In this document: one piece after another, positions 1 to 18,007 of the stretch
How positions within the stretch are numbered: position 1 is the first letter of the stretch
Layout: every line of letters begins with the position of its first letter
Assembly: GCF_012516375.2 (NCBI RefSeq)
Contig: NZ_CP051204.2
Coordinates: 6,014,001-6,078,000, forward strand
DNA: 64,000 nucleotides
Source: Chitinophaga oryzae
GTDB lineage: Bacteria > Bacteroidota > Bacteroidia > Chitinophagales > Chitinophagaceae
Direction: 5' to 3'
The notes under the pieces: model-generated
What the model was told of the DNA's origin: nothing
What the model saw: the letters and a program-made list of their open reading frames with translations, nothing else
Database searches by the model: none
Program-made: the position numbers and the translations under genes

Positions 1-1350
1 ACCTAACCCTATATTCAAATATCGAGCAACGGGCAAATCATCTCTATCGTATGTCGTCCAAGTAGTTGAAATATTCTTTGTTATGTTTCTTTTAATACCA
101 GTAATTGTGTTAATACTGAAATAACAGCCTAAATCAGCATCAAAATATACAACCCACTTCCCTGAGGGAGACAAAGTATAGGACTCGCCATTCCTATCAC
201 CAGACCCAGTCAGATTAATCTTCGTTCCATCTTCTATATTAACAAGCGAACAATTCAAAATGGCTTTCTCATTCCAATTCCACTCCCCCTTATAAGCTGA
301 AGCAGAAAACACGAGTTGTTTGGTTCTTTCGAGCCTTGGATAAATCGGCATATCGCCTTCCACCTGAATTTGGAGAAGACTATCCTTTCTAAGATTCCAA
401 ACAGCCAACATAGGCTCTTTTAAATCACTATCTGTACTTTTCAGATTTGAATCTAGGTAAGTCATAATACTTACCTCATTCATCTTCTTTTCCTCTTTCT
501 TCTTTACCAATCGGCAATAGACAAAATTACCCTCTCCGCTGAATATACTTAAATTTTTAAGGTAATATCCACTATTGACTTTCATTTTAGGATACTTCCG
601 AACAGCTTGTGTTGTTCTTTTTCTATTAAAGTACCAAAGTGATGTAGCGACGGAATTCTCACCTCCATTCATATTAACGCAAAAAACCAGTTGATTACCA
701 TCTGAATCCCAAACGGGATTAATAGGCTCTGCACCACGATAGATCTCGTGTTCTTTAAAGTCATTCAAATTACACTCAGTTAATGTATAAGTAGCTGAAT
801 CGGTTTTTCGCTTCAAAACAATAAAACCACCAACATCACTCATCCAATAATCATATACGTTACTGTAACTTAAACGCCGTCCATTTTCTAGCTCCCGAAC
901 CGATAACTGTTTCACATCTGCATTGACATTCTGATATACAAGTAAACTCGAATTCTTTCCCTTAACGACTTTAAACCCCTGTACTCCAGGAATAATTTCT
1001 ACATTATATGAATCTAAGGAAACTATGGAGAGATTCTTTCCTGGCTCCATACATAAAAAGTACCTATTGTTCGGAGAGAAGGTGCAATTCCCAGGACTAA
1101 CATTCTCAAACTCCATCTGAAACAAAGTGTCCAAGGACTTCAGGACGATGGTCATAGCACCTTCCTTGGGTTTATTAACCACCGCATAACTTACGAATTT
1201 TCCGTCCCCGCTGATCACTGCTCCTCCAACGGTTACCCAACTTGCATAATCATCTAAACCCAGTGGTTTTTTTTGAGCATACGATCTATTCAAGGCCAAA
1301 ATTAACGTTATGACTAACATTACAAATACTTGGCACAATCGTGACCTCAA
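1..1350 (-). CDS. S9 (prolyl oligopeptidase family) peptidase, N-terminal part, cut by window edge
   Basis: About 450 codons are open on the minus strand to position 1 with no stop, so the 3' part lies outside the window. A TTG at 1350 gives a good signal peptide (basic RSR, then a hydrophobic core ending NRSYAQ) and has a GGAGGG run at 1357-1362 just upstream. The first ATG at 1320 would remove the basic n-region. The mature start KPLGLDDYASW followed by VISGDGKFVSYAV resembles the long exported S9 serine peptidases of Bacteroidota, whose N-terminal half is a beta-propeller. LSPSGKWVVYF near the end fits that too. The catalytic Ser-Asp-His domain would be off the left edge and cannot be checked. 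It is last in the minus-strand row behind the small peptide genes and is AT-rich like them. Confidence 0.72.
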   Translation of the reverse strand, partial: MRSRLCQVFVMLVITLILALNRSYAQKKPLGLDDYASWVTVGGAVISGDGKFVSYAVVNKPKEGAMTIVLKSLDTLFQMEFENVSPGNCTFSPNNRYFLCMEPGKNLSIVSLDSYNVEIIPGVQGFKVVKGKNSSLLVYQNVNADVKQLSVRELENGRRLSYSNVYDYWMSDVGGFIVLKRKTDSATYTLTECNLNDFKEHEIYRGAEPINPVWDSDGNQLVFCVNMNGGENSVATSLWYFNRKRTTQAVRKYPKMKVNSGYYLKNLSIFSGEGNFVYCRLVKKKEEKKMNEVSIMTYLDSNLKSTDSDLKEPMLAVWNLRKDSLLQIQVEGDMPIYPRLERTKQLVFSASAYKGEWNWNEKAILNCSLVNIEDGTKINLTGSGDRNGESYTLSPSGKWVVYFDADLGCYFSINTITGIKRNITKNISTTWTTYDRDDLPVARYLNIGLG

Positions 1351-1423
1351 CCTACACCCTCCACAATAAAACTGTAAAACAAAACAATACATATAAAAAT
1401 GCAATTTAACTTATTAAGTTCCT

Positions 1424-1454
1424 CAAAAGGTACGTTGTAATAACAAAATCAAAA
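1424..1454 (-). promoter_or_regulatory. Possible Bacteroidota promoter for the S9 peptidase gene
   Basis: On the minus strand, TTTTG, a 17-base spacer and TACCTTTTG resemble the Bacteroidota -33/-7 consensus (TTTG, N17-23, TAnnTTTG) with one extra T in the -7 box. It lies about 75 bases upstream of the TTG start and after the terminator of the preceding peptide gene, so the peptidase may have its own transcript. Confidence 0.35.
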
Positions 1455-1525
1455 GAAGAAAGTAGTATCGCAGAAAGAAAAAACCATGACAGCTATCCAG
1501 CAACCCACAGAGCTAAATTGCAAAA

Positions 1526-1547
1526 GGAGGGAGCACAAGCTCCCTCC
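1526..1547 (-). terminator. Rho-independent terminator after first peptide gene
   Basis: GGAGGGAGC and GCTCCCTCC form a perfect 9-bp stem around an ACAA loop. On the minus strand it is followed by TTTTGCAATTT. It sits 29 bases past the stop of the peptide gene at 1576-1827. Confidence 0.75.
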
Positions 1548-1575
1548 ATATACAACTTTGTTAGTCGCGACTTTA

Positions 1576-1827
1576 TTAGTCGTGGCTAGTAGCAAGTGTC
1601 TGATATTTTGTCAGACAAGGACCAGGGATCAATGTAGCATTGATACCGTTAATTGGATCAGCAACGCCCAAAGTGCGTTGAGTCAGGAAGCTAGTTACTG
1701 GACAATTTTTAGATCCAGGAGCATCTTCTGTATAAACCTTAACGTTTACACGTGCGCTAGATGCGGTAACAGCTGCAACGATAGCAACTACTGCTACTGA
1801 AGATAACAAAATTTTAACCTTTTTCAT
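1576..1827 (-). CDS. Small exported Cys-containing peptide 1 (paralogue family)
   Basis: An 83-residue protein with a basic start (MKKVK) and a hydrophobic segment to about residue 23, followed by ASSARVNVKVYT. The mature part has two Cys, at NCPVTS and at the PGPC motif near the C-terminus. It is closest to the peptide at 5439-5687: both share VNVKVYTE or NNVKVYTE, GS-NCP-TS, ATL-PGPC and TKY. The layout recalls DUF6520-type small secreted proteins of Bacteroidota, but I cannot confirm membership. A strong hairpin terminator follows at once. Function is unknown; it could be an exported structural or signalling peptide, or a precursor processed after export. The paralogue pattern makes it a real gene. 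Confidence 0.75.
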   Translation of the reverse strand: MKKVKILLSSVAVVAIVAAVTASSARVNVKVYTEDAPGSKNCPVTSFLTQRTLGVADPINGINATLIPGPCLTKYQTLATSHD

Positions 1828-1997
1828 GATTTTAAATTTTGAAGGAATTTAAAAATATTGCCTACTATATTATGAGGGTGTTCGGCGATTCCCTTGATCA
1901 GATTGAAGTAAAGAGGGTACCTACTCAATATTCATCTGACTATTGCGCAATATTCAAATTTCATTCATTACGATTATAGCTCTAGAAGAACGAAAAA

Positions 1998-2474
1998 CTA
2001 TTTTAACAAAGCTTTCGCCTCAGTAGCTCCAACGAAAACCTTTCTAAGTCGATTTCTGGAAAAGACTGTAGTATGTGGCACATTGCGAACCCGAAAGCTT
2101 TGTATATAGACAAAGCCAGTGTCCACTCCTACATGTATATTTTGAAATCGATCAAGTCTATAGTTTTTCGAAAAACTTCTTAAGTCTTCAATCTTTGCTA
2201 CACTAATAAAGCAAAACTGTTTCCTTTTTAATATTTCCATACTATTAACAATACTCTCTGTTTCCGCACGGCAGTGTTCACAATATGGATCAAATAAAAA
2301 CATCACAAGATCATCTGAATCAGAAAAATTCTTTGTATTTAAAACAGAAGCACTATCCAACAATAAGATATTGAAAGATGGAAGACTGTCAATTCCATTC
2401 AAGCTAATAGATGTCTCGTTTGGTTTACATTGCGACAAAAAAAAGCATGAGACAATAAAAAAAACATGTTTCAT
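1998..2474 (-). CDS. Thioredoxin-like lipoprotein with CxxC
   Basis: I place the start at the ATG at 2474, because it gives a lipoprotein signal (MKHVFFIVSCFFLSQC, lipobox LSQC with Cys16). A longer frame begins at 2516. The product is 158 residues. FLFDPYCEHCRAE carries a CxxC pair (Cys65, Cys68) at the end of a beta strand, and NVPHTTVF later supplies the cis-Pro loop expected of a thioredoxin fold. It is probably a membrane-anchored periplasmic thiol-disulfide protein. It lies 67 bases downstream of the polytopic membrane gene on the same strand, so the two are likely co-transcribed. The neighbouring exported peptides contain paired Cys, which makes them plausible redox substrates; that link is inference. 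Confidence 0.72.
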   Translation of the reverse strand: MKHVFFIVSCFFLSQCKPNETSISLNGIDSLPSFNILLLDSASVLNTKNFSDSDDLVMFLFDPYCEHCRAETESIVNSMEILKRKQFCFISVAKIEDLRSFSKNYRLDRFQNIHVGVDTGFVYIQSFRVRNVPHTTVFSRNRLRKVFVGATEAKALLK

Positions 2475-2541
2475 TAAACCTAAATTCTGTTCAGTTATAA
2501 ATATTACCCACACCATCTACCTAGTTAGTCAACGCTTTGAT

Positions 2542-4074
2542 TCAACCAATCTCTTCATCTGATTTTTTCCCCTCTTTGGCTCCTTGTTTTAACATAAAGT
2601 CGAGTATCACAAACACAATTACAACAGACACTATAAGAGATAGTATTTGAAATCTTAGTGCAATAGGCGAAGCAAATACACTGAATACCATGTTACATAC
2701 CCAAAGTACTGCAAACAATAGCCACGTCTTAAATAAATCTCTTTCTTGTTCTCTTCCTTTTAATATAAAAAATGAAATACTCATCATTATAAAAACAGCG
2801 CTCATCGTTCCACAAATAATTGGATAGTAATCTAAGGCATTCACACTAACATCGCTAAATCGGGAGGTCACCCTTTTATCACGATAACGAAACCAATCTT
2901 TTGTAATAGCCGGGATTGTATCAACATTATATCCATAAGTACCGAGAAACTCAACTGGAGGACTGTAAAACTTCACAAAGTTTGGCCACAAAAACCTCTT
3001 AAAAAACGCGATTGGATAGGTCTTAATAAGCGTTGTACCGTACTCCTTGTACAACGGAGCAATACTAGACCATCTTTGAAATTCATCCATAGCGGGTTTC
3101 TTTTTAAAACTCTTACCCATAAAAGTTCGGAGTGGAGACGCTGGAGACCACATATACACCGCATTTATATCAAGCATTATTTCAGGAAACCTTCCTTCCA
3201 AGGTCCGAACAGTATCCAAATACATTCTAACCTCACGATCCAACTCTTTAAACTTCTCTGGTAATTCCTTCCTCTGTTCCGGAAGCACTCCTCGATATAT
3301 ATACAATCCATTATTAGCAATTTGCCAACCAGAAAACGGAGAAAATTGATATACACCTGTAAGCTTTTTGTACTTTAACGATGTCGCGAGAACAAACCCT
3401 CCAATCAAAAAAGCTCCAACAAGAACACCAACTATTCTAAGATTATTTTTTGCTTTTGCTCCTAAAAATGCAACTAAAGACACAATAGGATAGTAAAGCG
3501 CATTATATCGTATCATAAAGACCAACAATATCAAAAATGCATGAATTATAGCAAGGCTCCACGATGGCCTATGTAAAAACCATAGTAACGACGTTATCCA
3601 CAAAACACTCAATGCCAAAAACAACGCATCAGTTGATATATAGTTGGCCATATACAAAATTATCGGATTAACTGTTAGCAATCCCAAAAGAGTGTATTTA
3701 ATCCAAACATTAATTTCATGAAAATAAAATATGCTAAACAAAAAAAACCAAATGGAAATCTGGACAAAAAAATACTGAAAGACAACTAGACTTGTATCAT
3801 TAGTAGAGAATATACTAAAAAGTCTTAAAAACTTAGAATATCCAACTGGATGAACATCAAGCCTCGCATTTAAAAAGGCATTTTGTACATACTCAAACGA
3901 GTCACCATTTATAAATGACGCAAAGGGATAGTAGTACTTAAAAACAACTATCTGAATTACACAAATAAAAAAGCAAACTGCTACAGCTATTCGATTAAAT
4001 CCACTTTGCAATAAGAAGCCTTTAAAAGAAGGCTCCAAATTCAATTCCTTCTCAGAGAGATTTTGTCCTTCCAT
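2542..4074 (-). CDS. Polytopic membrane protein, GT-C glycosyltransferase-like
   Basis: A 510-residue protein with roughly ten or more hydrophobic segments. A first transmembrane helix near residues 28-46 is followed by an extracytoplasmic loop reading FINGDSFEYVQNA. An acidic residue in this first loop (Asp58) is the usual catalytic position of GT-C polyprenol-linked glycosyltransferases (GT39/ArnT-like). A large hydrophilic loop occupies about residues 250-390, and the C-terminal tail is charged. Overall length and plan match uncharacterised GT39-like proteins of Bacteroidota, but no substrate can be inferred. It is followed by the thioredoxin lipoprotein and flanked by the peptide genes. 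Low GC is shared with them. Confidence 0.6.
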   Translation of the reverse strand: MEGQNLSEKELNLEPSFKGFLLQSGFNRIAVAVCFFICVIQIVVFKYYYPFASFINGDSFEYVQNAFLNARLDVHPVGYSKFLRLFSIFSTNDTSLVVFQYFFVQISIWFFLFSIFYFHEINVWIKYTLLGLLTVNPIILYMANYISTDALFLALSVLWITSLLWFLHRPSWSLAIIHAFLILLVFMIRYNALYYPIVSLVAFLGAKAKNNLRIVGVLVGAFLIGGFVLATSLKYKKLTGVYQFSPFSGWQIANNGLYIYRGVLPEQRKELPEKFKELDREVRMYLDTVRTLEGRFPEIMLDINAVYMWSPASPLRTFMGKSFKKKPAMDEFQRWSSIAPLYKEYGTTLIKTYPIAFFKRFLWPNFVKFYSPPVEFLGTYGYNVDTIPAITKDWFRYRDKRVTSRFSDVSVNALDYYPIICGTMSAVFIMMSISFFILKGREQERDLFKTWLLFAVLWVCNMVFSVFASPIALRFQILSLIVSVVIVFVILDFMLKQGAKEGKKSDEEIG

Positions 4075-4515
4075 AACTTTCTGGGATGTTTGATTATCGA
4101 AAAACCATTAACCTAAAATCAATAAATAATAAATGAGATCCTTATGATAAGCTGTTCAGATGTACAGTCAACATAATACAACCAAGTCAATGCCATTTAA
4201 AGAAGGAAAGCTTCCATATCACTTATCATCATTGGCAAAAGGTCTATAAAATTAAGTTGAGGTTAATTAAGGGTTTCATAAAAACTAACAAGCATTTTAC
4301 ACACGTAGCTCCATTTGTCATTTAATGGCTATTCTTCATGCAATTTATAACAGTTCCAAAAACATTCCAAGAGTTTCAGCAAAACAAAAACCTCATTATA
4401 GCAACCAAAACCGTCTTACCAACCACAACCACAAACATAAACATCATTGTCTTTTCTTTTCATACAAAAGCTACCCCGTTTGTCAACCGTACAAATAGGC
4501 TCTTCAACTGTGGGG
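4075..4515. other. AT-rich intergenic stretch, no gene seen
   Basis: About 440 bases separate the membrane protein gene from the second peptide gene. Reading both strands, I see no coding frame that resembles the peptide family, no RNA gene and no convincing terminator. It presumably holds the promoter of the membrane protein/thioredoxin pair, though no clear TAnnTTTG box was found. Confidence 0.4.
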
Positions 4516-4758
4516 CTAATCGACATCCAAGGAAAATGTTGAAGCAGAAACACACGGCTGATTGGGAACTGATGTACACTTAAAAGTTCCACCTACATTC
4601 GGAACCATTGATCTAGGATACAAGGGTACGTTACACTTATCAGGATCAAGAGGCTGCTGAATATAGATAACATGATTCATTCTCGCTCTCGATGATAAAG
4701 AACCAGCAACAATTGCTGTAACAAATATAAACCCTAATAAAAATGCGACCTTTTTCAT
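4516..4758 (-). CDS. Small exported Cys-containing peptide 2 (paralogue family)
   Basis: An 80-residue protein from the ATG at 4758 (MKKVAFLLGF). The frame extends upstream to 4797, but the MKK start matches the three paralogues. A hydrophobic helix ends at SSRARMNHVIYI, which is nearly the same junction as in peptide 3 (ARNNHVIYT). The mature part holds Cys at DKCNV, FKCTS and the NQPC motif, which replaces PGPC. Peptides 2 and 3 form one subgroup and peptides 1 and 4 another. Function is unknown. Confidence 0.7.
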   Translation of the reverse strand: MKKVAFLLGFIFVTAIVAGSLSSRARMNHVIYIQQPLDPDKCNVPLYPRSMVPNVGGTFKCTSVPNQPCVSASTFSLDVD

Positions 4759-4909
4759 AACAAACAGTTTTAACGCGCCAACAAAACATTCAAACAAAAT
4801 CCTATCAACACTTTATTATCACATCAAAACGGCTACATCCTGTCATTTAATCCTTCAATCATTAGAAAAATAATTGGGAATATCCATATAACATAATTTA
4901 AAAAAAGCG

Positions 4910-4925
4910 TATAGACCAGTCTATA
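4910..4925. promoter_or_regulatory. Palindrome between peptide genes 2 and 3
   Basis: TATAGAC-CA-GTCTATA is a perfect 7-bp inverted repeat with a two-base centre. It lies in the 355-base AT-rich gap (4759-5113) upstream of peptide gene 2. It could be a dimeric repressor site. Nothing else was recognised in this gap. Confidence 0.3.
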
Positions 4926-5113
4926 ATAATTCTACTCCATATCTGCAATATGCTAACTAAATCCTTACACAGGTAGATTCTTTCCGCTCCCCTTTACACG
5001 CCCCGATTTAAGATGGCGCGTAAACAGACACACCTCATTATTTTCAATACCCATCAACTTACCTGGCGCTGATGATACAACCGAAGTTACTCTCCCGCAA
5101 CAAGCACACCACC

Positions 5114-5347
5114 TTAATTCACCACTTTTGTTGTAATTACCAACTCACAAGGACCGGGTACGTTTGTAGCCAGAAAACCAAATGTAGTATTACTCAATAT
5201 AGCCTTTCCGGGAACAAGAACATCACACATACCATTGGCCAAATTACGTGTATAGATAACATGATTATTACGGGCCTTTAATGCAAGAGATGTAGATGCA
5301 ACAATAACGATCCCAAGGGACACATAGAACATCATTAACTTTTTCAT
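5114..5347 (-). CDS. Small exported Cys-containing peptide 3 (paralogue family)
   Basis: A 77-residue protein starting MKKLMMFYVS, with a hydrophobic helix to about residue 22 and the family junction KARNNHVIYT. The mature part has two Cys, at GMCDVL and in the C-terminal NVPGPC motif. It lies 91 bases downstream of peptide 4 on the same strand, so the two may share a transcript. Function is unknown. Confidence 0.72.
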   Translation of the reverse strand: MKKLMMFYVSLGIVIVASTSLALKARNNHVIYTRNLANGMCDVLVPGKAILSNTTFGFLATNVPGPCELVITTKVVN

Positions 5348-5438
5348 ATGTTTTTTTTACTGTTATATAAGAAATAACGATAGACATGTCGATGCAGTAT
5401 GGCAAATCGCGCCTTATCAAAATCTTTTGTTTTGAACC

Positions 5439-5687
5439 TTAGTTATGACCTGCAAAGATTATACAATATTTGGTCGGACAGGGACCCGGTAAAAGTGTAG
5501 CACCAATTCCATCTGGACATGGTCTGATCATTGTATAGCCAGTCAAAAGACTTGTCATGGGACAATTTCCCGAGCCAACAGGATTTTCTGTATATACTTT
5601 AACATTATTACGCGCACGGGACGCTAGTATTCCCGAAACAATCGTAGCGAACAATACAGCCGATAATAAACCTCTGATTTTTCTCAT
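5439..5687 (-). CDS. Small exported Cys-containing peptide 4 (paralogue family)
   Basis: An 82-residue protein starting MRKIRGLLSA, with a hydrophobic segment and then SRARNNVKVYTE. It is the closest relative of peptide 1 (shared GS-NCP-TS-LT, ATLLPGPC and TKY) but has two extra Cys, at RPCPDG and TKYC. It is 48 bases downstream of the AraC-type regulator on the same strand, suggesting that the regulator controls or is co-expressed with the peptide row. Confidence 0.72.
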   Translation of the reverse strand: MRKIRGLLSAVLFATIVSGILASRARNNVKVYTENPVGSGNCPMTSLLTGYTMIRPCPDGIGATLLPGPCPTKYCIIFAGHN

Positions 5688-5735
5688 AATTTCTAGTTTT
5701 TTTGGGGGTACATTATTGACTTAAACTCTACCCCC

Positions 5736-6065
5736 TCACTGCCACTTCACCTCCCCTGGCGTCTCCTGGAACACCCGGTGAAACGCCCGCGCAAAACTAC
5801 CCGAAGTGCTATACCCTAAAGTTATAGCCACCTCTTTTACCTGGTGGTCCTGTTGCAGGAGTTCTTTGGCATAATTCATCGCGCGTTCAAGCTGATACTG
5901 ATAAATAGTTACGTGGTAGAGCATTTTAAAACCTTTTGTTAGTTTGCTTTCACTAAGACCGGAGAAGTGGACCAGGTGCTGTATATCTATTCTTTTTGGG
6001 GGCTGTTCGTCGATGAATGCTTTGGTCTTAATAATAGCTTTCTCTTGGAACTTTGTCAGTTTCAT
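5736..6065 (-). CDS. AraC-type helix-turn-helix regulator, DNA-binding domain only
   Basis: The start is placed at the ATG at 6065 (MKLTKFQEK), giving 109 residues; the frame is open further upstream. The whole protein is an AraC/XylS DNA-binding domain. The first helix-turn-helix spans about IDIQHLVHFSGLSESKLTKG. The second contains VKEVAITLGYSTSGSFARAF and ends with FQETPGEVK, the usual AraC signature end. There is no ligand-binding domain, which is common among short Chitinophaga regulators. It is the first gene of the minus-strand row leading into peptide 4, and its GC content is higher than that of the peptide genes, so it sits at the compositional boundary. Confidence 0.82.
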   Translation of the reverse strand: MKLTKFQEKAIIKTKAFIDEQPPKRIDIQHLVHFSGLSESKLTKGFKMLYHVTIYQYQLERAMNYAKELLQQDHQVKEVAITLGYSTSGSFARAFHRVFQETPGEVKWQ

Positions 6066-6240
6066 CAATTGATGGTTATGAGGGTATTGGCAATGTATCA
6101 TGCGATATACGTTTTACTCTAAAGTTGCAATCGCAATTAAAAGTTAGGACAATTTTGCCGGATTTTCAATAGAAACTGAAAGTTTTTTAAGCAACCAAAA
6201 CCGGCTGCATTATGCTCGCAGCAAGGGTTACAAAGAAAAT

Positions 6241-6262
6241 GGCAGGGAGAGAACTCCCCGCC
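6241..6262 (-). terminator. Probable terminator
   Basis: GGCAGGGAG and CTCCCCGCC pair with one mismatch around a four-base loop, and ATTTTCTTT follows on the minus strand. It lies 26 bases past the stop of the gene at 6288-6917. Confidence 0.5.
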
Positions 6263-6287
6263 GGAGCTTGTTGAATCGATAAATACG

Positions 6288-6917
6288 TTAACGGGATAGC
6301 CACGGCTTGTCGAAGCTCAGGTACAGGTCCTGTGAGATGACGTGCCAGTTGAGCAGCACAATACCGCTGTCTTCAAGCAGGCGCAGGGCGCTGACAGTGG
6401 TGATCGGATGCTGTGTGGACACGTCTTCTGCAAGGTGACCGTCGCTGCGTTGGTAGCTGAACCAATAATACTGCGCCGGCCGGTGGTCCGGACATAGTTC
6501 GGCCATGGGCATGGGCCGGTGGATGCCGTTGATCCGCAGTGGTTGTTCCAGCAACAGGTCATAATAATGTTGCAGCTCGTGCAACGATTCCATCACGAGG
6601 GGATCGGAGTGGTCGTCATATACATCTTCGATGTAATAGCCGTTACCGAGCCGTTGCAGCCGCAGACCGTTGCCGGCTTCGTACAGCCCGTTCTTACCAA
6701 TGACCGGTTTAAAACCGGCCAACTGTAAGATCCGTGGCGTTATCGGCACGCCTCCTACCTCTTTCAGGTGCATCCAGGTGGTACGACCTCCTTCCGGAGC
6801 GTCAGACAATAACAGTTCGTCCTTCTCTGCATTGATATCACGAACGAACATGACGGTGGCGTCATCTTGTAGTGGGCAGTCCACTACGTCGCCAATTTTA
6901 AACTGAAGTACTTTCAT
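6288..6917 (-). CDS. Uncharacterised cytosolic protein
   Basis: A 209-residue protein without signal peptide or membrane segment. The N-terminus (QFKIGDVVDCPLQDDATVMF) looks like a small beta-barrel. The C-terminal half contains the phrase LHELQHYYDLLLEQPLRI. Variants of that phrase recur in small Bacteroidota proteins of unknown function that are often found in phage-derived or accessory regions. It has its own well-formed promoter and terminator, so it is a single-gene unit. No catalytic motif is visible. Confidence 0.7.
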   Translation of the reverse strand: MKVLQFKIGDVVDCPLQDDATVMFVRDINAEKDELLLSDAPEGGRTTWMHLKEVGGVPITPRILQLAGFKPVIGKNGLYEAGNGLRLQRLGNGYYIEDVYDDHSDPLVMESLHELQHYYDLLLEQPLRINGIHRPMPMAELCPDHRPAQYYWFSYQRSDGHLAEDVSTQHPITTVSALRLLEDSGIVLLNWHVISQDLYLSFDKPWLSR

Positions 6918-6942
6918 TTGCTAAAAATGATTCATAACAATG

Positions 6943-6973
6943 CAAATATAAGGGAATCGACATAACAACCAAA
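6943..6973 (-). promoter_or_regulatory. Bacteroidota-type promoter for the gene at 6288-6917
   Basis: On the minus strand, TTTG, a 19-base spacer and TATATTTG match the Bacteroidota -33/-7 consensus exactly. The -7 box ends 26 bases before the ATG. Confidence 0.65.
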
Positions 6974-7158
6974 TTCAGTACAGCAAAGGTTTTGGACATA
7001 TTTTTTATCAAAATGACACGATTAAAATCAACGTGCTAATTGTATTCTACTTTCGATTAGGAAGACTTACAAAGTGATACTTTTTATGTCAAATGATGAA
7101 ATTTATTTTCATTTTGATCCGAAAAAATTCTTTTTTACAGGACAAGATAATAGAGACA

Positions 7159-8115
7159 TCACTTATCCATCAAAGGCAATAGCTGCGGTTCAAATGCAAA
7201 GACACCCTTCTGACCGGTCGTATCCCGTAGCACAGCCGCCGCCAGCAACCGGCACACCGGCTCCACCGCCGAAACATGGTCCTTACCAGGCATCACGTAA
7301 AAACGAAGGTCCTTCTCCCCCACCCCGGTTGCCTGCTCTTTCCACCATCTCATGTGAAACAAATATCCTTCTGCACCCCCCAACACATATACAGGCCTAC
7401 GAATAGACCTCAGCCATTTTACCGGCGTCCGTAACTCTATCTCGCGGATATCGAAGACACTGTATGTCAGTGAATCTTCATCCGACTGGTGGTCATTCAT
7501 GATTATCATCGGGTTAAAGCTAAACACCGCCCGGAACCGGCTGCTGCACTCCGCTGTCAACATCACCTCCGTAGCGCCAACACCCACTCCGCCCAGGTAT
7601 ATACGTTCCGGATCTATTCCCGGTTGTTGCGCCAGAAAATCCGCAGCGGCCACAATATCATCCACCTCCCCGAAACCGGATTCCACGTATCCCGGATTAC
7701 CGCTGCCTCCCCGTAAGGCTGGGTACATCATCACAATTCCGGCTTTTCTGAACGGCGCCCCTGTCTCTGTATCACCGATGCTATTCGTCAGCCCATCGTT
7801 GATCCATATGACTGCCGGATGCAACCGGCCATCCTTTGGTACCTTACTCAGGTAAGCCACCATGTTACCCATCGCCGTAGGATAATATACCAGTGAAAAT
7901 AGCCGCTTCGGCGCAGGCGTATCCACCATATGCCGCTTTCGCACCAGTTCTGTCACAAACCCCTGGCGCTCCAGGACCAGCTCCGTCAACCCGGTATCCG
8001 GCGGCGGCGGCTCCGCGGGAAACGGCCGCTCGATCCTGGCAGTATAAAGGCCACCGTATATGCCCAACAGTATCAAGGAAAAGAAAACAGCCAACGAACG
8101 ATAAACAGCTTTCAT
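7159..8115 (-). CDS. Alpha/beta hydrolase-fold protein with missing nucleophile
   Basis: The start is at the ATG at 8115 (MKAVYRSLAV), giving 318 residues with an N-terminal membrane anchor or signal (residues 8-24). The rest resembles the C-terminal catalytic domain of S9-type hydrolases: VIWINDG, then YPALRGGSGNPG (oxyanion loop), then the elbow strand RIYLGG, and GKDHVSAVEP carrying the expected His. The nucleophile elbow normally reads GGHSxGG, but here it reads GGVGVG (residues 175-180), so the serine is Gly178. The reading frame is intact, so it is not a simple pseudogene. It may be a non-catalytic binding protein. It is divergent from the M48 protease gene. Confidence 0.75.
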   Translation of the reverse strand: MKAVYRSLAVFFSLILLGIYGGLYTARIERPFPAEPPPPDTGLTELVLERQGFVTELVRKRHMVDTPAPKRLFSLVYYPTAMGNMVAYLSKVPKDGRLHPAVIWINDGLTNSIGDTETGAPFRKAGIVMMYPALRGGSGNPGYVESGFGEVDDIVAAADFLAQQPGIDPERIYLGGVGVGATEVMLTAECSSRFRAVFSFNPMIIMNDHQSDEDSLTYSVFDIREIELRTPVKWLRSIRRPVYVLGGAEGYLFHMRWWKEQATGVGEKDLRFYVMPGKDHVSAVEPVCRLLAAAVLRDTTGQKGVFAFEPQLLPLMDK

Positions 8116-8130
8116 AGATAGGATTTGTTG

Positions 8131-8138
8131 CAAAGGTA
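8131..8138 (-). promoter_or_regulatory. -7 box (TACCTTTG) for the hydrolase gene
   Basis: TACCTTTG on the minus strand matches the Bacteroidota -7 consensus and lies 16 bases upstream of the ATG at 8115. No good -33 box is seen at the right spacing. Confidence 0.4.
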
Positions 8139-8161
8139 ATAGGGACATATCCAATTTTTAA

Positions 8162-8169
8162 TATCTTTG
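8162..8169 (+). promoter_or_regulatory. -7 box (TATCTTTG) for the M48 protease gene
   Basis: TATCTTTG matches the -7 consensus and ends 25 bases before the start at 8195. It lies in the short divergent region shared with the hydrolase gene. The -33 element is not evident. Confidence 0.4.
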
Positions 8170-8194
8170 CGCCCAATACCTACGAAATAAAGAT

Positions 8195-9646
8195 ATGTCA
8201 ACCTGCAGATCCCTTACACTGTCAGCCCTGATGCTGTGCTGCCAAAGTATTGTAGCCCAAATCAAGCCCATTTACAATTACAAGGACCTTTCCCATGCCT
8301 GTTACGAACACCGGAAAGACTCCCTGAAAAAAACATGGACCTGTCCCACTGTCTACAAAGACAAAGAGACCCAGAAAAAATACAGGGATATCTGGAACGA
8401 GCGCACCGACTTCATCACGGAAGCCATCGACAACGACAGCTACCTGTATGAAGCAGAGATGCAAACTTATCTTGACGGCATCGTCCGGCAAATCGCGGCC
8501 GCCAATCCCAAACTGATCCCCCAGCCACCGATGCTGCTGATAGACCGCAATACCTCGGTCAACGCCTACGCTACCGGCAGCAACCTCATGGCAGTCAATA
8601 TCGGCCTGCTGGCCTTCTCCCGTACCCGGGAGGAACTGGCCCTGGTACTGGCACACGAAATGGCCCATAATGCCCTTCAGCATCCCGAAAACGGGATGAA
8701 GAAACGCGCCGAGTGGTTCACCTCCGACGAGTACAAACAGTCGTTAAATGCGGTATTGGACTCCCGCTACGAACGCCTCACCCGCCTGAAGAAAGTATTC
8801 GAAGGCTATTCTTTCGACAGAAGCAAACACCAGCGGTACCATGAAGGGGATGCCGACTCCCTGGCCATCGTCCTCCTGAAAAACAGCCATATCGGGATCG
8901 ACCCTACGATGTTCCTGCGGCTGGATAGCGCCGATATCCAGTACCGGCAGCCACTCAAAAAACACCTGCGCGACTATTTTTCGGCTTATCAACTGCAGGT
9001 GGAAGACAGTTGGATGGTGAAACGTACCCGGGGACTCTCCGCTAAAGCGTACAGCTTCAACAACACCAGCGCAGGCCTCGCCGATTCCCTGAAAACGCAC
9101 CCCGACTGCCAGGAGCGCTATAACAAAACCCGGCATGAACAGACCAACACCCCGCTGACGCCCATCCCGGCCACCCTGCGGGATAAAGCCATGAAGATGA
9201 TGGTATGGAACATCTACTGCAACGGCAACATGACCGCCGCCCTGTACCGCATCTTGCTGGAAAAAGACCGGGGCAACAACGACCCGTGGTACGATTTTAT
9301 GTTCAGCAACGTGATGTCCGGCCTCTACTACGCCGATCAGAAACTGAACCGCTTCAATGCCATCGCGGTAAAACCCAAGGAATACATCTCCGGCAGCTAC
9401 TACGAGCTGGAAACAATGTTCGAGCAGATGCCCCGGGAGAAACTGGAAGCTTTCCATCATTCCCTGCAACAGGCGCCTTTCTGGAGCAGCATGACACCTT
9501 CCGAGCATGGATTCAAATCCCTGATCAACACGCTCGTGTCCAATGCCAGCGACACCGACAAACAAAGGGCAGCGGCCAAATCTTTTATCGTCAGCTACCC
9601 CGACAGCCCATACTGCGAATTCGTCACACCCTTTTCAAAAAAATAA
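8195..9646 (+). CDS. M48 family zinc metalloprotease, exported
   Basis: A 483-residue protein with an N-terminal signal (MSTCRSLTLSALMLCCQSIVAQ). The zinc site is HEMAH (His154, Glu155, His158), and the third ligand is probably Glu217 in YHEGDADSLAI, the standard M48 arrangement. The phrase NAYATGSNLMAVNIGLL before the zinc helix is also typical. The C-terminal 250 residues are an extra helical region without recognised repeats. M48 proteins such as BepA act in quality control of envelope proteins in the periplasm; a comparable role is inferred. The following gene starts 41 bases downstream and may be co-transcribed. Confidence 0.85.
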   Translation: MSTCRSLTLSALMLCCQSIVAQIKPIYNYKDLSHACYEHRKDSLKKTWTCPTVYKDKETQKKYRDIWNERTDFITEAIDNDSYLYEAEMQTYLDGIVRQIAAANPKLIPQPPMLLIDRNTSVNAYATGSNLMAVNIGLLAFSRTREELALVLAHEMAHNALQHPENGMKKRAEWFTSDEYKQSLNAVLDSRYERLTRLKKVFEGYSFDRSKHQRYHEGDADSLAIVLLKNSHIGIDPTMFLRLDSADIQYRQPLKKHLRDYFSAYQLQVEDSWMVKRTRGLSAKAYSFNNTSAGLADSLKTHPDCQERYNKTRHEQTNTPLTPIPATLRDKAMKMMVWNIYCNGNMTAALYRILLEKDRGNNDPWYDFMFSNVMSGLYYADQKLNRFNAIAVKPKEYISGSYYELETMFEQMPREKLEAFHHSLQQAPFWSSMTPSEHGFKSLINTLVSNASDTDKQRAAAKSFIVSYPDSPYCEFVTPFSKK

Positions 9647-9687
9647 ACAGTAACCGTTTTCCCATTATTTATCCCACAACTACCATC

Positions 9688-11250
9688 ATGAAACATGTTA
9701 TCATCGCATGCGCCCTGCTGCTGTCCGTCATCCGCAGCACCCATGCCCAAACCCGCGTATTCAAGGAAGTAGGCAACGAGATCTCCTCCTCTATGCGCGC
9801 CATCACCCAGGACGGCGCCCTGGTGGGCTACCTCGTTTTCACTGAACTGGAAAAAGCAGACAAAGACTCGTTCAACTACAAACTCACCATCATGGATGAG
9901 AACCTGAACGACATCGGAAAAGTAAACTTCCGCGAAATGAAGCTGGACCTCCGGTCGGTAGCATTCGAACAGGATGTGCTCTGCCTGGCTTACATGAAAA
10001 GTAACCTCCTCGGTTATACGTACGACCACCGCAGGGACAAAAAAGACGCTATCAAAAAAGGCTACCTGGCGGTATACACCCAGTTCATCGACCTGACCGG
10101 CAAAATGCTGAAAACAAACACCATCAGGGTAAACACAGACCTGAAAGGCAACTTCTCCAACGCCTCCACTTCCATCGGCTCCGGCGGCATGAAAGAATCC
10201 CTGCGGGTGAGTAACGTCAACGGCAAAGGCTTCGCCTGTTTCTTTGGCGACGACCGCGGAAAATTCCTCTATGCCTATGACAAAAACGGTAATCAGATCT
10301 GGCACAAAAGAGTAGGCCTCGAAGATGCCGACTACAACATGCTGGTCTCCGGTCATGATGTGTACTTCCTGGTCCATCGCAGCGACCCCAAAGCGGAAGG
10401 CGGCTTCGCCATCCAGGGTTATGGGCTCGATGACAGCACCACCATCTCCCGCCAATACCTGAAAGACAAGAAGGGAAACCCACTGCGCGTACTGGCCTTC
10501 ACCAACAATCCTGCCACCGGAAAACCTTATGTGTCCGGTACCATTATCGACCCGCGTAAAGGCAAAGGGCCGGTATTTCTCCGCTCTGTTGCGAAAGGCC
10601 GTTACACCGGCCTGTTTACCCTCAACATCGACGGCCGTGGCCGCGACAGCATAAAACCTGTATATACCTATTGGAAAGACCAGACAGCGCTCACCAATAC
10701 GAGAGGCCGTTTTAACCACAACAAATCCTTTCTGATGGCAGGCCCGTCTTTCAAAGACTTTTCCGGCAACACCTATTTCACCGGCACCGCAGCCAAACGT
10801 ACCATCAACACCGGCCTGGTGATCGCCGAAGCTGCTACGCTTCCACTGATCATACCGCCGATCTATATGCTAAGCTTAGGCGGTACCCGCAAGTTTATCG
10901 CCCGTGAATCTATGGTACTGAAACAAACGCCGGAAGGCGCACTGTCGCTGGACAACAGCATCGCCGTAGCCAACAGCCGCGGCATCGCTGCGAAAATCGC
11001 CATGGAATCAATGGACAACAAATCGTACTACAGTCTCCATTCTCCGGAAAAGAAGGCTACCTACCTGATCATCACCGAACAGAAAAACATTACCCTCTAT
11101 CACGTGGACGCGAAGAAAGTAATACGTACCATCCCCCGCAAGGATGGTAGCATAGAAACACTGATCTTCCCTGCGAAAGAAGGGCATGTGCTGGTAGCGG
11201 AATATAACAAGAAAGAGAAGTCAAGAAAGTTCTCGATAGAAGCATTGTAA
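9688..11250 (+). CDS. Exported protein of unknown function (possibly DUF6770)
   Basis: The start is at the ATG at 9688 (MKHVIIACALLLSVIRSTHAQ), which gives a clear signal peptide. The frame is open further upstream but would overlap the protease gene. The mature protein is about 500 residues of mostly beta structure with recurrent strands such as GYLVFTELEKADKDSFNYKL and GKFLYAYDKNGNQIWHKRV. A short hydrophobic patch occurs near VIAEAATLPLIIPPIYML. It resembles a family of secreted Chitinophaga proteins I recall as DUF6770, without certainty. No catalytic motif is visible. It lies behind the M48 protease and ends at a strong bidirectional terminator. Confidence 0.7.
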   Translation: MKHVIIACALLLSVIRSTHAQTRVFKEVGNEISSSMRAITQDGALVGYLVFTELEKADKDSFNYKLTIMDENLNDIGKVNFREMKLDLRSVAFEQDVLCLAYMKSNLLGYTYDHRRDKKDAIKKGYLAVYTQFIDLTGKMLKTNTIRVNTDLKGNFSNASTSIGSGGMKESLRVSNVNGKGFACFFGDDRGKFLYAYDKNGNQIWHKRVGLEDADYNMLVSGHDVYFLVHRSDPKAEGGFAIQGYGLDDSTTISRQYLKDKKGNPLRVLAFTNNPATGKPYVSGTIIDPRKGKGPVFLRSVAKGRYTGLFTLNIDGRGRDSIKPVYTYWKDQTALTNTRGRFNHNKSFLMAGPSFKDFSGNTYFTGTAAKRTINTGLVIAEAATLPLIIPPIYMLSLGGTRKFIARESMVLKQTPEGALSLDNSIAVANSRGIAAKIAMESMDNKSYYSLHSPEKKATYLIITEQKNITLYHVDAKKVIRTIPRKDGSIETLIFPAKEGHVLVAEYNKKEKSRKFSIEAL

Positions 11251-11264
11251 AACAATACGCCTAT

Positions 11265-11309
11265 AAAAAGCGATCCCGTTTGATAATGCATCAAACGGGA
11301 TCGCTTTTT
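11265..11309. terminator. Bidirectional terminator between convergent genes
   Basis: A perfect 20-bp inverted repeat (arms 11265-11284 and 11290-11309, loop AATGC) has A-runs on one side and T-runs on the other. It can end transcription both from the plus-strand gene stopping at 11250 and from the minus-strand gene stopping at 11326. Confidence 0.9.
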
Positions 11310-11325
11310 ATAATTTGTATAATGA

Positions 11326-11868
11326 TCAATACACCCCATTCAGCGTCAGCTCATACGTCGCCTTCGCTCCCGGTATCCCTCCGCCTACTTCCAGTTTCTT
11401 CGTCAGCGTCGTCGCCGGCAGGCTCACATGATACTTGCCGTCTTTGTCTTTGGTCACTGTCGCGGTACCAGCGGCGCTGTACCCATACAACACAGAGCCG
11501 GTGCTCACTGCGGTACCTACGGTACAATCAATCACGATGATGTTACGGGTAGGGTTGGCCACCGACATTTCGGTGGTACCAAGAGTATACTGTCCTTCGC
11601 CGTGGTTGTAGAAAGTAATAGTGACAGCGCTGCCGGAGAAAGCGCCGTAGTTGCCCCCATCACCGGAGGTGGTGACGGCGATGCCGGTGATGATACCATC
11701 GGCAGGCGCAGGGGTGGATGTCTGGGAGGAAGCACCTCTTGTGTAAGTGTTAGCTCCCAGTTTCCAGGTAGCATCACCATCGCTGGAAGGCGTGACTTCA
11801 TTCTTTTTTCCACAGGAGAACAAAACGGCGGAAAACAGCGCCAGCAGGAGCGGTACGGTCTTTTTCAT
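11326..11868 (-). CDS. Small lipoprotein of unknown function
   Basis: The start is at the ATG at 11868 (MKKTVPLLLALFSAVLFSC), giving 180 residues with lipobox LFSC. The frame extends to 11985 but the longer version would bury the signal. The mature part is beta-rich and Gly/Thr/Ser-rich (WKLGANTYTRGAS, TFYNHGEGQYTLG). It resembles the small immunoglobulin-like lipoproteins common in Chitinophaga. No function can be assigned. It faces the preceding plus-strand operon across the shared terminator. Confidence 0.75.
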   Translation of the reverse strand: MKKTVPLLLALFSAVLFSCGKKNEVTPSSDGDATWKLGANTYTRGASSQTSTPAPADGIITGIAVTTSGDGGNYGAFSGSAVTITFYNHGEGQYTLGTTEMSVANPTRNIIVIDCTVGTAVSTGSVLYGYSAAGTATVTKDKDGKYHVSLPATTLTKKLEVGGGIPGAKATYELTLNGVY

Positions 11869-12002
11869 ATATTCTTTTTGGGTTAAAATTGACGGTTGTC
11901 TATAAAAAGAAAAAAGCCCCGCCATCTTGCGACGACAGAGCTTAAAGCTTGATGCGAAACTAAAATTAAAATCGCTAAGAGACAAATTATTCTTTGGCGG
12001 AG

Positions 12003-12767
12003 TTATATCCTGCCGTCTCTCATTTGTTCCATTCCCTGCCGGTAAGTTGTTGTTGTAAAATCAGGGAACCGCTGCTTAAACTTTGATGAATCAAATATGT
12101 TGTCGTAAGCATATCGGGGCAACAGCTCCTGTATCTCGGCGGCTTTCTTGCTGAAGATAGCATAGCGCGACTGGCATCAGGCGTCCAGATCAAAATTCTT
12201 AACACATCGTCGCGGAGCAACACTTTTAGTTTTATGTTGCCGGACCGCATCAAAAATAAATATGTTGGTGATGCTCTGTGTTTTCCCGGGACCATAGAAC
12301 TCCGGGGCGCGGCAGATCACCGCTGTTATTTGTCCGGCGTTCATTTCCGACAGGAGCATTTCCGCCATGACTTTCCGCTCCATCCCCTTTCTTCCTACGG
12401 GGGCAAACGGTGTTTGCTCTGTCAATACCTGTGCGTTCTGGGGGTACATGTAGGTATTGTCGAAAAAGACCAGTTTGGTATGATGCTTTTTGCAGGCATT
12501 GATCACGTTGCGCATGATGACCGGGAACTGCTCCTCCCACATGCGGGTATCCATAGGCAAGCCCAGGGTAAACCAGGCGATTTCGCTGCCGGCTACCGCT
12601 TCCTACGCTTTGGCGCCATCCAGCAGGTTGGCGGCCAACAACGTGTCTGTATCGTTCACCTTGCGGGGATGCCGGCTCACCAGCCTGATATCGGAAGTAT
12701 ACTTCCGTTTCAGCTCTTTGGCCAGTTCTTCGGCAATCTGTCCGTTTGCACCGAGTATTGTCTGCAT
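12003..12767 (-). pseudogene. Decayed NAD-dependent epimerase/SDR gene
   Basis: The first frame starts MQTILGANGQIAEELAK (Rossmann motif) but hits TAG at 12603-12605. The same frame resumes directly (EAVAGSEIAWFTLGLP) and continues through NVINACKKHHTKLVFFDNTY and CRAPEFYGPGKTQSITNI. Near 12235 it shifts frame; the other frame then reads LRILIWTPDASRA. After that, homologues should have about 60-70 more residues, but the sequence jumps to YAIFSKKAAEIQELLPRY in a third frame, ending at TAA 12003. A stop, a frameshift and an internal deletion mean it is not functional. The intact gene would be an extended SDR, downstream of the DJ-1/PfpI gene by 10 bases. Confidence 0.85.
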
Positions 12768-12777
12768 TTGACGTTAT

Positions 12778-13476
12778 TTATTTTGCCATCTCCCGTATCA
12801 CTACCTTCGCCATGGCTTTTGAGCTGAATGGGTTTTGCCCGGTAATCACATGTCCGTCCACCACCACCTTAGACGTCATGGGGATAAAAGCTTTCTGATA
12901 ATCGACGCCTCTTGCTTTGAGGGCAGCTTCCAGGTTAAAAGGTACTTTCTTTTTCCGCCGGGCGATGCTTTCTTCAAACCAATCGAACCCGGTGAGTTTT
13001 TTGCCTTTGAGGAGGTATTCGCCATTGGATAACCGGACGTTCAGCAAACCGCCTACGCCATGACAGATAGCGGTGATCATTTTACCGCGCTCATAATGCC
13101 CGCTGATGATTTTCTGCAGCAGCACATTTTCCGGCAAATCATACATGGTGCCGTGTCCGCCGGCCAGATAGATACAATCAAACTGCTGGTCCGCGATCTC
13201 CTGCAGGCTTTCGGTATGCTGTAATAAATCCCTGAAGGCGCTGTCTTCCCAATAGGCTTTTGTGATGCTGTCCAGTACAAATGGTTTCAGGCTTTCGGGG
13301 TCGACAGGCGTATTGCCTCCTTTAGGGCTGGCGATGGTGATGTCATATCCCTGGTCCCCGGCGCTGTGATAGATATGCGTAAGTTCGCTGAGCCATAACC
13401 CGGTGGGCGTGTGTCCATCTGCATACCTGTCAACATTCGTTACTACTAGTAAGATCTTTTTCGTTTGGTCATTCAT
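12778..13476 (-). CDS. DJ-1/PfpI family protein (HchA-like type 1 glutamine amidotransferase fold)
   Basis: A 232-residue cytosolic protein. The nucleophile elbow AICHGVGGLL carries Cys138, LAGGHGTMYDLP supplies the following loop, and the early LSELTH gives the conserved Glu31. This arrangement is that of Hsp31/HchA-like and PfpI-like proteins, which act as glyoxalase III, deglycase or chaperone. Length fits the Hsp31-like branch. It is the upstream gene of a two-gene unit whose second member, an epimerase/SDR, is now a pseudogene. The pair suggests an original role in detoxification of reactive carbonyls; that is inference. Confidence 0.88.
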   Translation of the reverse strand: MNDQTKKILLVVTNVDRYADGHTPTGLWLSELTHIYHSAGDQGYDITIASPKGGNTPVDPESLKPFVLDSITKAYWEDSAFRDLLQHTESLQEIADQQFDCIYLAGGHGTMYDLPENVLLQKIISGHYERGKMITAICHGVGGLLNVRLSNGEYLLKGKKLTGFDWFEESIARRKKKVPFNLEAALKARGVDYQKAFIPMTSKVVVDGHVITGQNPFSSKAMAKVVIREMAK

Positions 13477-13561
13477 AAAAGAGGGCTGTGAAAGGAGTAG
13501 GAAAATTTTGGTCGACTGGTAATCCTATAAAGTTAACGGAAAAATCTCCTTATGATATAAA

Positions 13562-13597
13562 AAAAGCGCCCAAAAACGATTGTTTTTGCGCGCTTTT
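13562..13597 (-). terminator. Rho-independent terminator after collagen-like lipoprotein gene
   Basis: A 16-bp stem with one mismatch and a GATT loop is followed on the minus strand by a run of seven T. It lies 21 bases beyond the stop of the gene at 13618-14208. Confidence 0.85.
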
Positions 13598-13617
13598 AGC
13601 CGCTATAGCAGGAAGTG

Positions 13618-14208
13618 TTAGTCCTTCAGACCAAGGTAGGCTTTCACGGCTTTATAATCGTTCCAGTCGATCGTATTGGATTTCCGGGCGGCGGTGCCGC
13701 CGGGAATGAGGATATACCTGTATTGCAGTCTTTTTGCCCCGGTATTGTCGGTGAAAGTGCCCGCATTAATATTGGAGTAGAACTCAAGTGTCTGCTGATA
13801 GGCGACATACCGGATGAAAACACCGCCCGGCTCCGTATACGGCAGGGAGGTGATGGTTGGATCTGCAGCGCCGGTGAAGTTAATATACACCTTCACCTCG
13901 CCTTTGTTCAGGATGTCGGCAGTGAGTTTGGCGGCGGCGGCAAAGGCGAAGTAACCGATAGTGTCTACCCTGCCGCCGGCGGTGTGAACAGTATCGGGTT
14001 TATAGGCTATATCGAGCCAGTCGGAATAGATGACATTGGCGGTGCCTGGTTCGCCCTGCGGGCCGGGATCGCCTTTGTCGCCTTTATCCCCTTTTTGTCC
14101 TTGCTGGCCGGCAGGACCGGGATCTCCGTCTTTGCTGCAGGAGGCAGTCAATAATACAGCTGTTGCAATAAGCAGCAGGAAGGGCAGGGAGTGCAATAAA
14201 CGTTTCAT
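13618..14208 (-). CDS. Lipoprotein with collagen-like Gly-X-Y stretch
   Basis: A 196-residue protein with lipoprotein signal (MKRLLHSLPF, lipobox LTASC). Directly after the anchor come about nine Gly-X-Y triplets (GDPGPAGQQGQKGDKGDKGD and so on), a collagen-like stretch from about residue 28 to 55. The C-terminal 140 residues form an independent beta-rich domain (NVIYSDWLDIAY, KVYINFTGAADPTITSLPY) seen in many Bacteroidota lipoproteins with unknown role. The collagen stretch may act as a spacer or trimeriser at the cell surface. The gene stands alone with its own terminator. Confidence 0.85.
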   Translation of the reverse strand: MKRLLHSLPFLLLIATAVLLTASCSKDGDPGPAGQQGQKGDKGDKGDPGPQGEPGTANVIYSDWLDIAYKPDTVHTAGGRVDTIGYFAFAAAAKLTADILNKGEVKVYINFTGAADPTITSLPYTEPGGVFIRYVAYQQTLEFYSNINAGTFTDNTGAKRLQYRYILIPGGTAARKSNTIDWNDYKAVKAYLGLKD

Positions 14209-14337
14209 GGAGCAGAGAATTTAAATTTTCGAGGTTTATAATTGGAAATTGGCTGATACGCGCTGAATAGGAGGAACCAGTATAGGGCACTGGTATAAAG
14301 AAAAACCCCTGATGATCGAAGACCATCAGGGGAGATG

Positions 14338-14422: not shown

Positions 14423-14432
14423 AGTGAGACCG

Positions 14433-16731: not shown

Positions 16732-16811
16732 ACAAATAAAATATCTCAGGGTTACGAAGGTAAGTAGAATAACAATACAAAAACAAATTTATTTCCGGGA
16801 AAAAACAAAAA

Positions 16812-18005: not shown

Positions 18006-18007
18006 AG

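What the first reader, a model, noticed from the sequence alone, without database searches (positions are those of the whole stretch)
1..6065. Row of four paralogous exported Cys peptides with a thioredoxin lipoprotein, GT-C-like membrane protein, S9 peptidase and AraC regulator
All genes lie on one strand in an AT-rich block. The four peptides (77-83 residues) share a basic start, a hydrophobic helix, a junction AR-x-N-x-x-VYT/I, and a late C-terminal (V/L)PGPC or NQPC motif, and each has at least one other Cys. They fall into two pairs (1 with 4, 2 with 3), which suggests serial duplication. The neighbours are what a peptide maturation system would need: a CxxC thioredoxin, a polytopic membrane enzyme and an exported peptidase. 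No known RiPP or bacteriocin biosynthesis gene is present. Similar peptides may be filed as DUF6520; the joint system appears to be undescribed. The functional link between genes is inference.
Basis: partly seen in the sequence, partly recalled or inferred. Interest (0 to 1): 0.8.

Follow-up and report, generated by a model that had tools for sequence, protein, structure and literature searches.

The report
Exported paired-cysteine peptide maturation cluster
A soil bacterium carries a row of small exported peptides with paired cysteines beside a membrane sugar-transferase, a redox protein and a peptidase; the same set recurs across related bacteria and looks like an undescribed system for making, and probably taking back up, sugar-decorated peptides.

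Summary
The four peptides belong to a family found through Chitinophaga and in Niastella, Longitalea, Puia, Olivibacter and Pedobacter. Of 76 peptide loci in 36 same-genus genomes, an S9 peptidase lies within 1 kb of 49 (0.37 expected), GT-C within 3 kb of 25 (0.46), thioredoxin within 3 kb of 25 (0.26). A recurring order is GT-C, thioredoxin, peptide(s), facing S9, Trx or GH2, SusD, SusC. The family keeps its leader and two cysteines; the cysteine number is even in 136 of 149, so disulfides are likely; the core is Thr-rich. The GT-C protein models best onto protein O-mannosyltransferases; a dolichol-phosphate-mannose-synthase-like GT2 is present in 15 of 65 GT-C loci. Some relatives have a LanKC. 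DUF6520 peptides of other Bacteroidota sit in similar loci (MauE and SusCD 13 of 13, S9 10 of 13) without GT-C. Best reading: exported peptides are disulfide-bonded and O-glycosylated in the periplasm, cut by S9, and taken up or sensed through SusCD. The unit is well supported; the chemistry and the product's role are inferred. My paper searches showed no description of it.

The parts
1..1404 (-). N-terminal half of an exported S9 (prolyl oligopeptidase-type) peptidase; complete 898-aa gene at L065 8696-11392 (-)
   Evidence: PF00326 86 bits on the whole protein; Ser730, Asp818, His850 kept in 67, 64 and 67 of 67 relatives over 800 aa; S9 of this type within 1 kb of 49 of 76 peptide loci
1576..1827 (-). 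PEP1, exported peptide, 83 aa, 2 Cys
1998..2516 (-). thioredoxin-like protein with CEHC, likely start at the internal MKH; possible lipoprotein (not tested)
   Evidence: Thioredoxin_8 E 1e-4, below Pfam's cut-off; best PDB hit PDI A4, E 7e-4; best relatives adjoin GT-C
2542..4074 (-). GT-C membrane glycosyltransferase, 510 aa
4516..4758 (-). PEP2, exported peptide, 80 aa, 3 Cys
5114..5347 (-). PEP3, exported peptide, 77 aa, 2 Cys; 73% identical to a C. eiseniae peptide
5439..5687 (-). PEP4, exported peptide, 82 aa, 4 Cys; 52% identical to PEP1
5736..6101 (-). stand-alone AraC-type DNA-binding protein, 121 aa, at the border of the AT-rich island; dedicated regulator or mere neighbour
   Evidence: PF12833 65.6 bits; 94-98% identical beside the cluster in four other species; an AraC-type protein under 160 aa somewhere in 20 of 65 GT-C loci

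Best explanation
The cluster makes and handles exported, disulfide-paired peptides. The leader (MKKAKxxLxAxAVLAVxGGALA|FKA type) takes each peptide through Sec. In the periplasm the thioredoxin-like protein (with MauE in 23 of 65 related loci) pairs the cysteines. The GT-C enzyme, of protein O-mannosyltransferase fold, adds sugar to Thr/Ser of the peptide from a polyprenyl-phosphate donor (a candidate donor-making GT2 is present in 15 of 65 related loci). The exported S9 peptidase cuts the product, and the SusC/SusD pair with FecR outside the window takes up or senses it. Shown: the genes form a conserved unit; the peptides are a family with mostly even cysteine numbers; the GT-C fold (predicted model); the S9 catalytic residues. 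Inferred: Sec export, disulfides, Thr glycosylation, cutting by S9, uptake by SusCD.
Against: The four window peptides are only about 10% Thr (23 of 226 core residues; PEP2 3 of 56). In 14 Chitinophaga peptide loci with no GT-C or LanKC in the stretch, the 23 peptides are just as Thr-rich, 20.3%, so Thr may be structural, or GT-C acts in trans. PEP2 has an odd cysteine number. PMT leads OST and ArnT by only 1.5 and 3 Z units, Foldseek gives no match at E <= 0.001, and a shared fold does not show the acceptor. No MauE or GT2 was seen in L065 or beside the window cluster. 13 of 76 peptide loci have no partner within 10 kb. Nothing here shows that any enzyme touches a peptide.
Confidence: 0.55

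Rival explanations
1. Lanthipeptide-type system: the peptides are RiPP precursors whose Thr/Ser and Cys are joined by a LanKC; the window cluster is a form that has lost LanKC or uses one elsewhere.
For: LanKC lies within 3 kb of 8 of 76 peptide loci, 0.14 expected, e.g. L093, L095-L097, and in one row with GT-C and peptides in L211 and L236, where the domains RamC_N, Pkinase and LANC_like were checked. Thr, Ser and Cys are the residues it needs.
Against: LanKC is in 3 of 65 GT-C loci and absent from L065 and the window cluster; the own genome's one match is a kinase-type relative without LANC at 3.385 Mb. Even cysteine numbers are not expected of lanthionine rings. The leader looks like a Sec signal.
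Confidence: 0.12
2. Scavenging: SusCD, Trx/GH2 and S9 are a nutrient uptake locus for foreign (glyco)peptides; the small exported proteins are regulators, inhibitors or chaperones of the S9 peptidase.
For: S9 is the closest and commonest partner (49 of 76 within 1 kb); of 14 fetched peptide loci without GT-C or LanKC, 13 have S9 and 10 have SusD.
Against: In DUF6520 loci without S9 a Met-zincin (L264) or an S8 subtilase (L276) is present instead, which a dedicated S9 inhibitor would not explain. GT-C, GT2, MauE and LanKC are not needed for uptake. Peptide cores are highly variable (19% identity between loci).
Confidence: 0.18
3. GT-C glycosylates another acceptor (lipid or surface glycan) and is a neighbour by shared island membership only.
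Against: Peptide and thioredoxin both accompany GT-C in 53 of 65 loci, and genome-level co-occurrence is 25/2/1/8.
Confidence: 0.12

Closest known systems
DUF6520 (PF20130) loci of other Bacteroidota
   Same: exported small Cys peptide with SusD and SusC (13 of 13), S9 peptidase (10 of 13) and an AraC-type protein (8 of 13); even Cys numbers in 11 of 11 peptides counted
   Different: MauE in 13 of 13 but not at the window; no GT-C, GT2 or LanKC recognised in the 13; window peptides do not match the model; no paper in the held library has the word
Sec-signal RiPPs of Bacteroidota (chryseobasin / DybA, DAG-RiPPs; PMC12636315, passages and discussion section read)
   Same: RiPP precursors with SPI or SPII signals; one cluster has a secreted prolyl oligopeptidase; SusC/SusD often present; product function unknown
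   Different: modified by an MNIO at a C-terminal CPACGMG-type motif, which the window peptides lack; no GT-C in the parts I read
Class III lanthipeptides with prolyl oligopeptidase (FlaP, 'LanPB'; PMC10885120 and PMC7268733, passages)
   Same: S9 peptidase beside the peptide; LanKC in some relatives
   Different: no LanKC at the window; Sec-like leader; GT-C and thioredoxin
Protein O-mannosyltransferase with dolichol-phosphate-mannose synthase
   Same: GT-C fold; in 15 of 65 related loci a GT2, of which one tested is DPM-synthase-like; Thr-rich exported acceptor candidate
   Different: not in the PMT sequence family; tied to a small peptide locus; donor sugar unknown; no GT2 at the window
MauE/MauD of methylamine dehydrogenase maturation (PMC7794033, passages)
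   Same: MauE plus a thioredoxin-like partner beside a Cys-bearing exported protein in 23 of 65 related loci (MauE)
   Different: MauE absent from the window cluster; other mau genes were not searched for

Membership tests
DUF6520 (PF20130) | match to the Pfam model | tested here: not met
   no match at E <= 1 for the four window peptides; 7 of 60 relatives at E <= 0.01, best 3e-4; 0 in own genome
DUF6520-type locus | exported Cys peptide with S9, SusC and SusD | tested here: met
   window plus L065 against L264-L276
DUF6520-type locus | MauE beside the peptide | tested here: not met
   MauE in 13 of 13 DUF6520 loci; the own genome's four MauE matches lie at 2.1-4.0 Mb, the window cluster at 6.01-6.02 Mb
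Class III lanthipeptide | LanKC in the cluster | tested here: not met
   none in L065/window cluster; own genome's one match is a RamC_N-kinase of 465 aa elsewhere
RiPP | post-translational modification of the peptide | not testable with these tools
   needs mass spectrometry
Protein O-mannosyltransferase (GT39) | GT-C fold with PMT as best match | tested here: met
Protein O-mannosyltransferase (GT39) | match to PMT/PMT_2 sequence models | tested here: not met
   window protein none; 1 of 48 relatives at E 0.0012; no PDB sequence match at E <= 10
S9 peptidase | Peptidase_S9 domain over cut-off and Ser-Asp-His | tested here: met
   86.1 bits, cut-off 22.6; S730, D818, H850
Thioredoxin/TlpA-like | CxxC in a thioredoxin domain over the curated cut-off | tested here: inconclusive
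   CEHC present; best Pfam score 22.9, cut-off 27
MNIO-modified Sec RiPPs (chryseobasin/DybA) | C-terminal CPACGMG-type motif | tested here: not met
   window peptide C-termini
MNIO-modified Sec RiPPs (chryseobasin/DybA) | MNIO enzyme in the cluster | not tested
   not searched for by name

The most novel reading that the evidence does not exclude
A closed peptide cycle: the cell builds a disulfide-bonded, periplasmically O-glycosylated peptide with a private PMT-like enzyme, releases it, and takes it back (bare or carrying a ligand) through its own SusC/SusD/FecR receptor, where the paired dismantling enzymes (GH2 glycosidase or Trx reductase, S9 peptidase) undo exactly the modifications made. 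It would be a glycopeptide signal or metallophore of Bacteroidota, with interchangeable tailoring enzymes (GT-C, GT-C+flavoprotein, LanKC, MauE) around one leader family.
Probability: 0.25. Interest if true: 0.9.

Novelty: new variant of a known kind. Interest (0 to 1): 0.75.

Why it matters
RiPP glycosylation known to me (recalled) is done in the cytosol with nucleotide sugars; a peptide family matured outside the inner membrane by a PMT-fold enzyme, with swappable tailoring partners, would be a new route and a mining handle. Of the 10 named hits among 25 database relatives, 9 are 'hypothetical protein' and one 'type 1 fimbria pilin', so mining tools probably miss the family (inference). It also gives a function to test for DUF6520 and for many SusCD/S9 loci that would otherwise be filed as nutrient uptake.

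Tried and rejected
Chance neighbourhood: rejected. Peptides as plain DUF6520 members: rejected for the window's four. Window peptides as lanthipeptides: no LanKC. Fimbrial subunits: only 1 of 60 peptides each touches LpfA or FimG models, E about 1e-3; not pursued. First genome-contig scan with PEP4 found no relative. Order-wide peptide search found 4 of 248 genomes, but it scored at most 22 candidates per genome, and L177-L236 later showed the family in other genera, so its negative result is not used. Cys-free peptides with thioredoxins lacking CxxC: not found (7 of the 9 Cys-free ones sit with CxxC thioredoxins, 2 with none). Thr-richness tied to a local GT-C: not borne out inside Chitinophaga. 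Single-sequence AF2 of the GT-C was sent without an alignment by mistake and was useless (pLDDT 42.8). A motif pattern missed the S9 serine in 24 of 67; the alignment shows it in 67 of 67. The fold list is a second look at Foldseek's ranking; an unlisted family is not excluded.

Limits: expected counts assume uniform placement; genomes are related; some of the 77 GT-C loci overlap, and the scan kept the best 80 of 176 matches; genes were called by a simple longest-ORF script. Loci under 20 kb (12 of 77) were left out of the 65-locus counts; two GT-C copies with a stop (L178, L181) were dropped from A4; 2 of 13 DUF6520 peptides (L270, L271) were not listed by my filter and not counted. Paper searches list at most 8 to 20 of up to several hundred papers.
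Full report
What is there. The left 6.1 kb of the window is an AT-rich island (G+C 0.361 for 1-5735; 0.531 for 6288-64000) with, all on the minus strand, a 121-aa AraC-type protein, peptides PEP4, PEP3 and PEP2, a 510-aa membrane protein, a thioredoxin-like protein, PEP1 and an S9 peptidase that runs past the window edge. Reading the same chromosome further (L065) completes the S9 gene (898 aa) and adds, beyond an IS3 element and on the other strand, a 435-aa thioredoxin-family protein, SusD, SusC with an STN domain, and FecR (Pfam). The flank right of AraC is chromosomal: the 209-aa and 483-aa genes are 99% and 93% identical in C. eiseniae, where the GT-C is 49%. AraC is 94-98% identical in four species; in three of them it is more conserved than the 209-aa gene beside it (58-79%; 99% in C. 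eiseniae), so it may be the island's regulator or simply a conserved neighbour. The genus is Chitinophaga by the named contigs that match the same loci.

The peptides are a family. None of the four matches Pfam or NCBIfam usefully. A profile of four, then of 60 (alignment A2), finds relatives in 27 of 36 same-genus genomes. Leader identity between loci is 43%, core identity 19%; within a locus 56% and 44%. Across 149 distinct peptides of 77 named loci, the leader reads MKKAKIxLTAIAVLAVVGGALAFKA, two core cysteines are kept in about 90% and the core is 19.0% Thr, against 4.9-7.5% in S9, SusD, SusC, TRX and GT-C of the same loci. Cysteine counts are 0:9, 1:2, 2:75, 3:5, 4:48, 5:6, 6:4 - even in 136 of 149; taking one peptide per locus, on average 64.5 of 66. 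Paired cysteines point to disulfides. In the window the counts are 2, 3, 2 and 4, so PEP2 breaks the rule, and the window cores are only about 10% Thr.

The partners are linked. Counting 144 peptide rows as 76 loci, S9 is within 1 kb of 49 (0.37 expected by random placement), GT-C within 3 kb of 25 (0.46), thioredoxin within 3 kb of 25 (0.26), LanKC within 3 kb of 8 (0.14); 13 loci have none within 10 kb (the partner lists were partly trimmed, see limits). The 9 genomes without peptides hold 1 to 3 S9 genes of this type, the others 1 to 11. Peptide and GT-C genes are both present in 25 of 36 genomes, peptide alone in 2, GT-C alone in 1, neither in 8. A scan with the GT-C alignment gave 77 named loci from Chitinophaga, Niastella, Longitalea, Puia, Olivibacter domesticus, Pedobacter paludis and some other records and MAGs. 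In the 65 of at least 20 kb: TRX 58, peptide 58, S9 50, SusD 44, an AraC-type protein 42, a fused or separate flavoprotein domain 31, MauE 23, GT2 15, LanKC 3; peptide+TRX 53, with S9 45, with SusD too 32. A frequent order is AraC, GT2 and/or MauE where present, GT-C, TRX, peptide(s), facing S9, a Trx or GH2 protein, SusD, SusC. The flavoprotein domain (PF01593/PF13450) and GT2 share a locus in only 3 of 65 (28 and 12 alone, 22 neither; Fisher p 0.02), a hint that they supply the same need. Fourteen further Chitinophaga peptide loci, fetched because they had no GT-C or LanKC nearby, have S9 in 13 and SusD in 10, with 23 peptides of 20.3% Thr and even cysteine number in 22: the innermost pair is peptide and S9.

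A wider system. DUF6520 was searched in 198 Bacteroidota genomes: 14 had a match, 10 over the cut-off, none in the own genome. All 13 matches over the cut-off were fetched. Around them: MauE 13 of 13, SusC and SusD 13 of 13, S9 10 of 13, an AraC-type protein 8 of 13; no GT-C, GT2 or LanKC recognised. Of the three without S9, L264 has a Met-zincin and L276 an S8 subtilase; in L273 no peptidase was identified. The 11 peptides I read there have 4 or 2 cysteines and 8.2% Thr. So the common core is an exported even-cysteine peptide, a redox protein, an exported peptidase and SusCD; the window shows the GT-C-bearing variant, whose peptide family is Thr-rich. Against a simple link of Thr to GT-C, peptides of loci without a local GT-C are as Thr-rich, though their genomes carry GT-C elsewhere.

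How it most likely works. The peptides leave through Sec, are disulfide-paired by TRX (and MauE where present), O-glycosylated by GT-C on Thr/Ser from a polyprenyl-phosphate sugar, cut by S9, and met at the outer membrane by SusCD, whose STN domain with FecR suggests signalling. The enzymes on the SusCD side (Trx or GH2, S9) could undo what the other side builds, which suggests that the cell takes back its own product. Only the genetics of this are shown.

Against what is known. A 2025 preprint (PMC12636315, passages and the discussion section) describes Bacteroidota RiPPs with Sec signals, one cluster with a secreted prolyl oligopeptidase, often with SusC/SusD, of unknown function; they are made by MNIO enzymes at a C-terminal motif absent here. 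S9 peptidases serve class III lanthipeptides (PMC10885120, PMC7268733, passages). Ten searches for a description of this cluster showed none in their listings; the listings are capped and the library lacks most subscription papers.

Noticed in passing
L246 (G000:C1:3378000-3397999) 5823-18454: A second, related cassette in the same genome: AraC, a RamC_N-kinase of 465 aa without a LANC domain, MauE, two small signal-bearing Cys peptides, then SusD, SusC and FecR.
   Followed up: partly
L163 7695-10340: A second S9 peptidase about 50% identical to the window's, in apparent synteny with L160 of C. eiseniae, which has a peptide beside it; no such peptide was found in L163, but two short ORFs with double-glycine-like leaders lie upstream.
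   Followed up: partly
L076 7552-18643 (G014): A separate flavoprotein, a GT-C and a full LanKC in one row, with a methyltransferase, PhyH and a sugar-type MFS transporter nearby.
   Followed up: partly
L169-L245: Flavoprotein domain (amine-oxidase/UGM-like, often fused to GT-C) and GT2 seldom occur in one locus (3 of 65).
   Followed up: partly
L265-L272, L274, L275 (about 500-aa ORFs): MauE-matching proteins of about 500 aa; in the one scanned (L266) only the first 135 residues have a Pfam name. L264 and L276 have a short MauE and a separate ~350-aa ORF without a Pfam match; homology of the two was not tested.
   Followed up: no
L065 7465-8567: An IS3 element sits between the S9 gene and the thioredoxin-family/SusD/SusC genes.
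   Followed up: no
window 7159-8154: A small alpha/beta hydrolase with an S9-like domain (30 bits) just outside the island.
   Followed up: no
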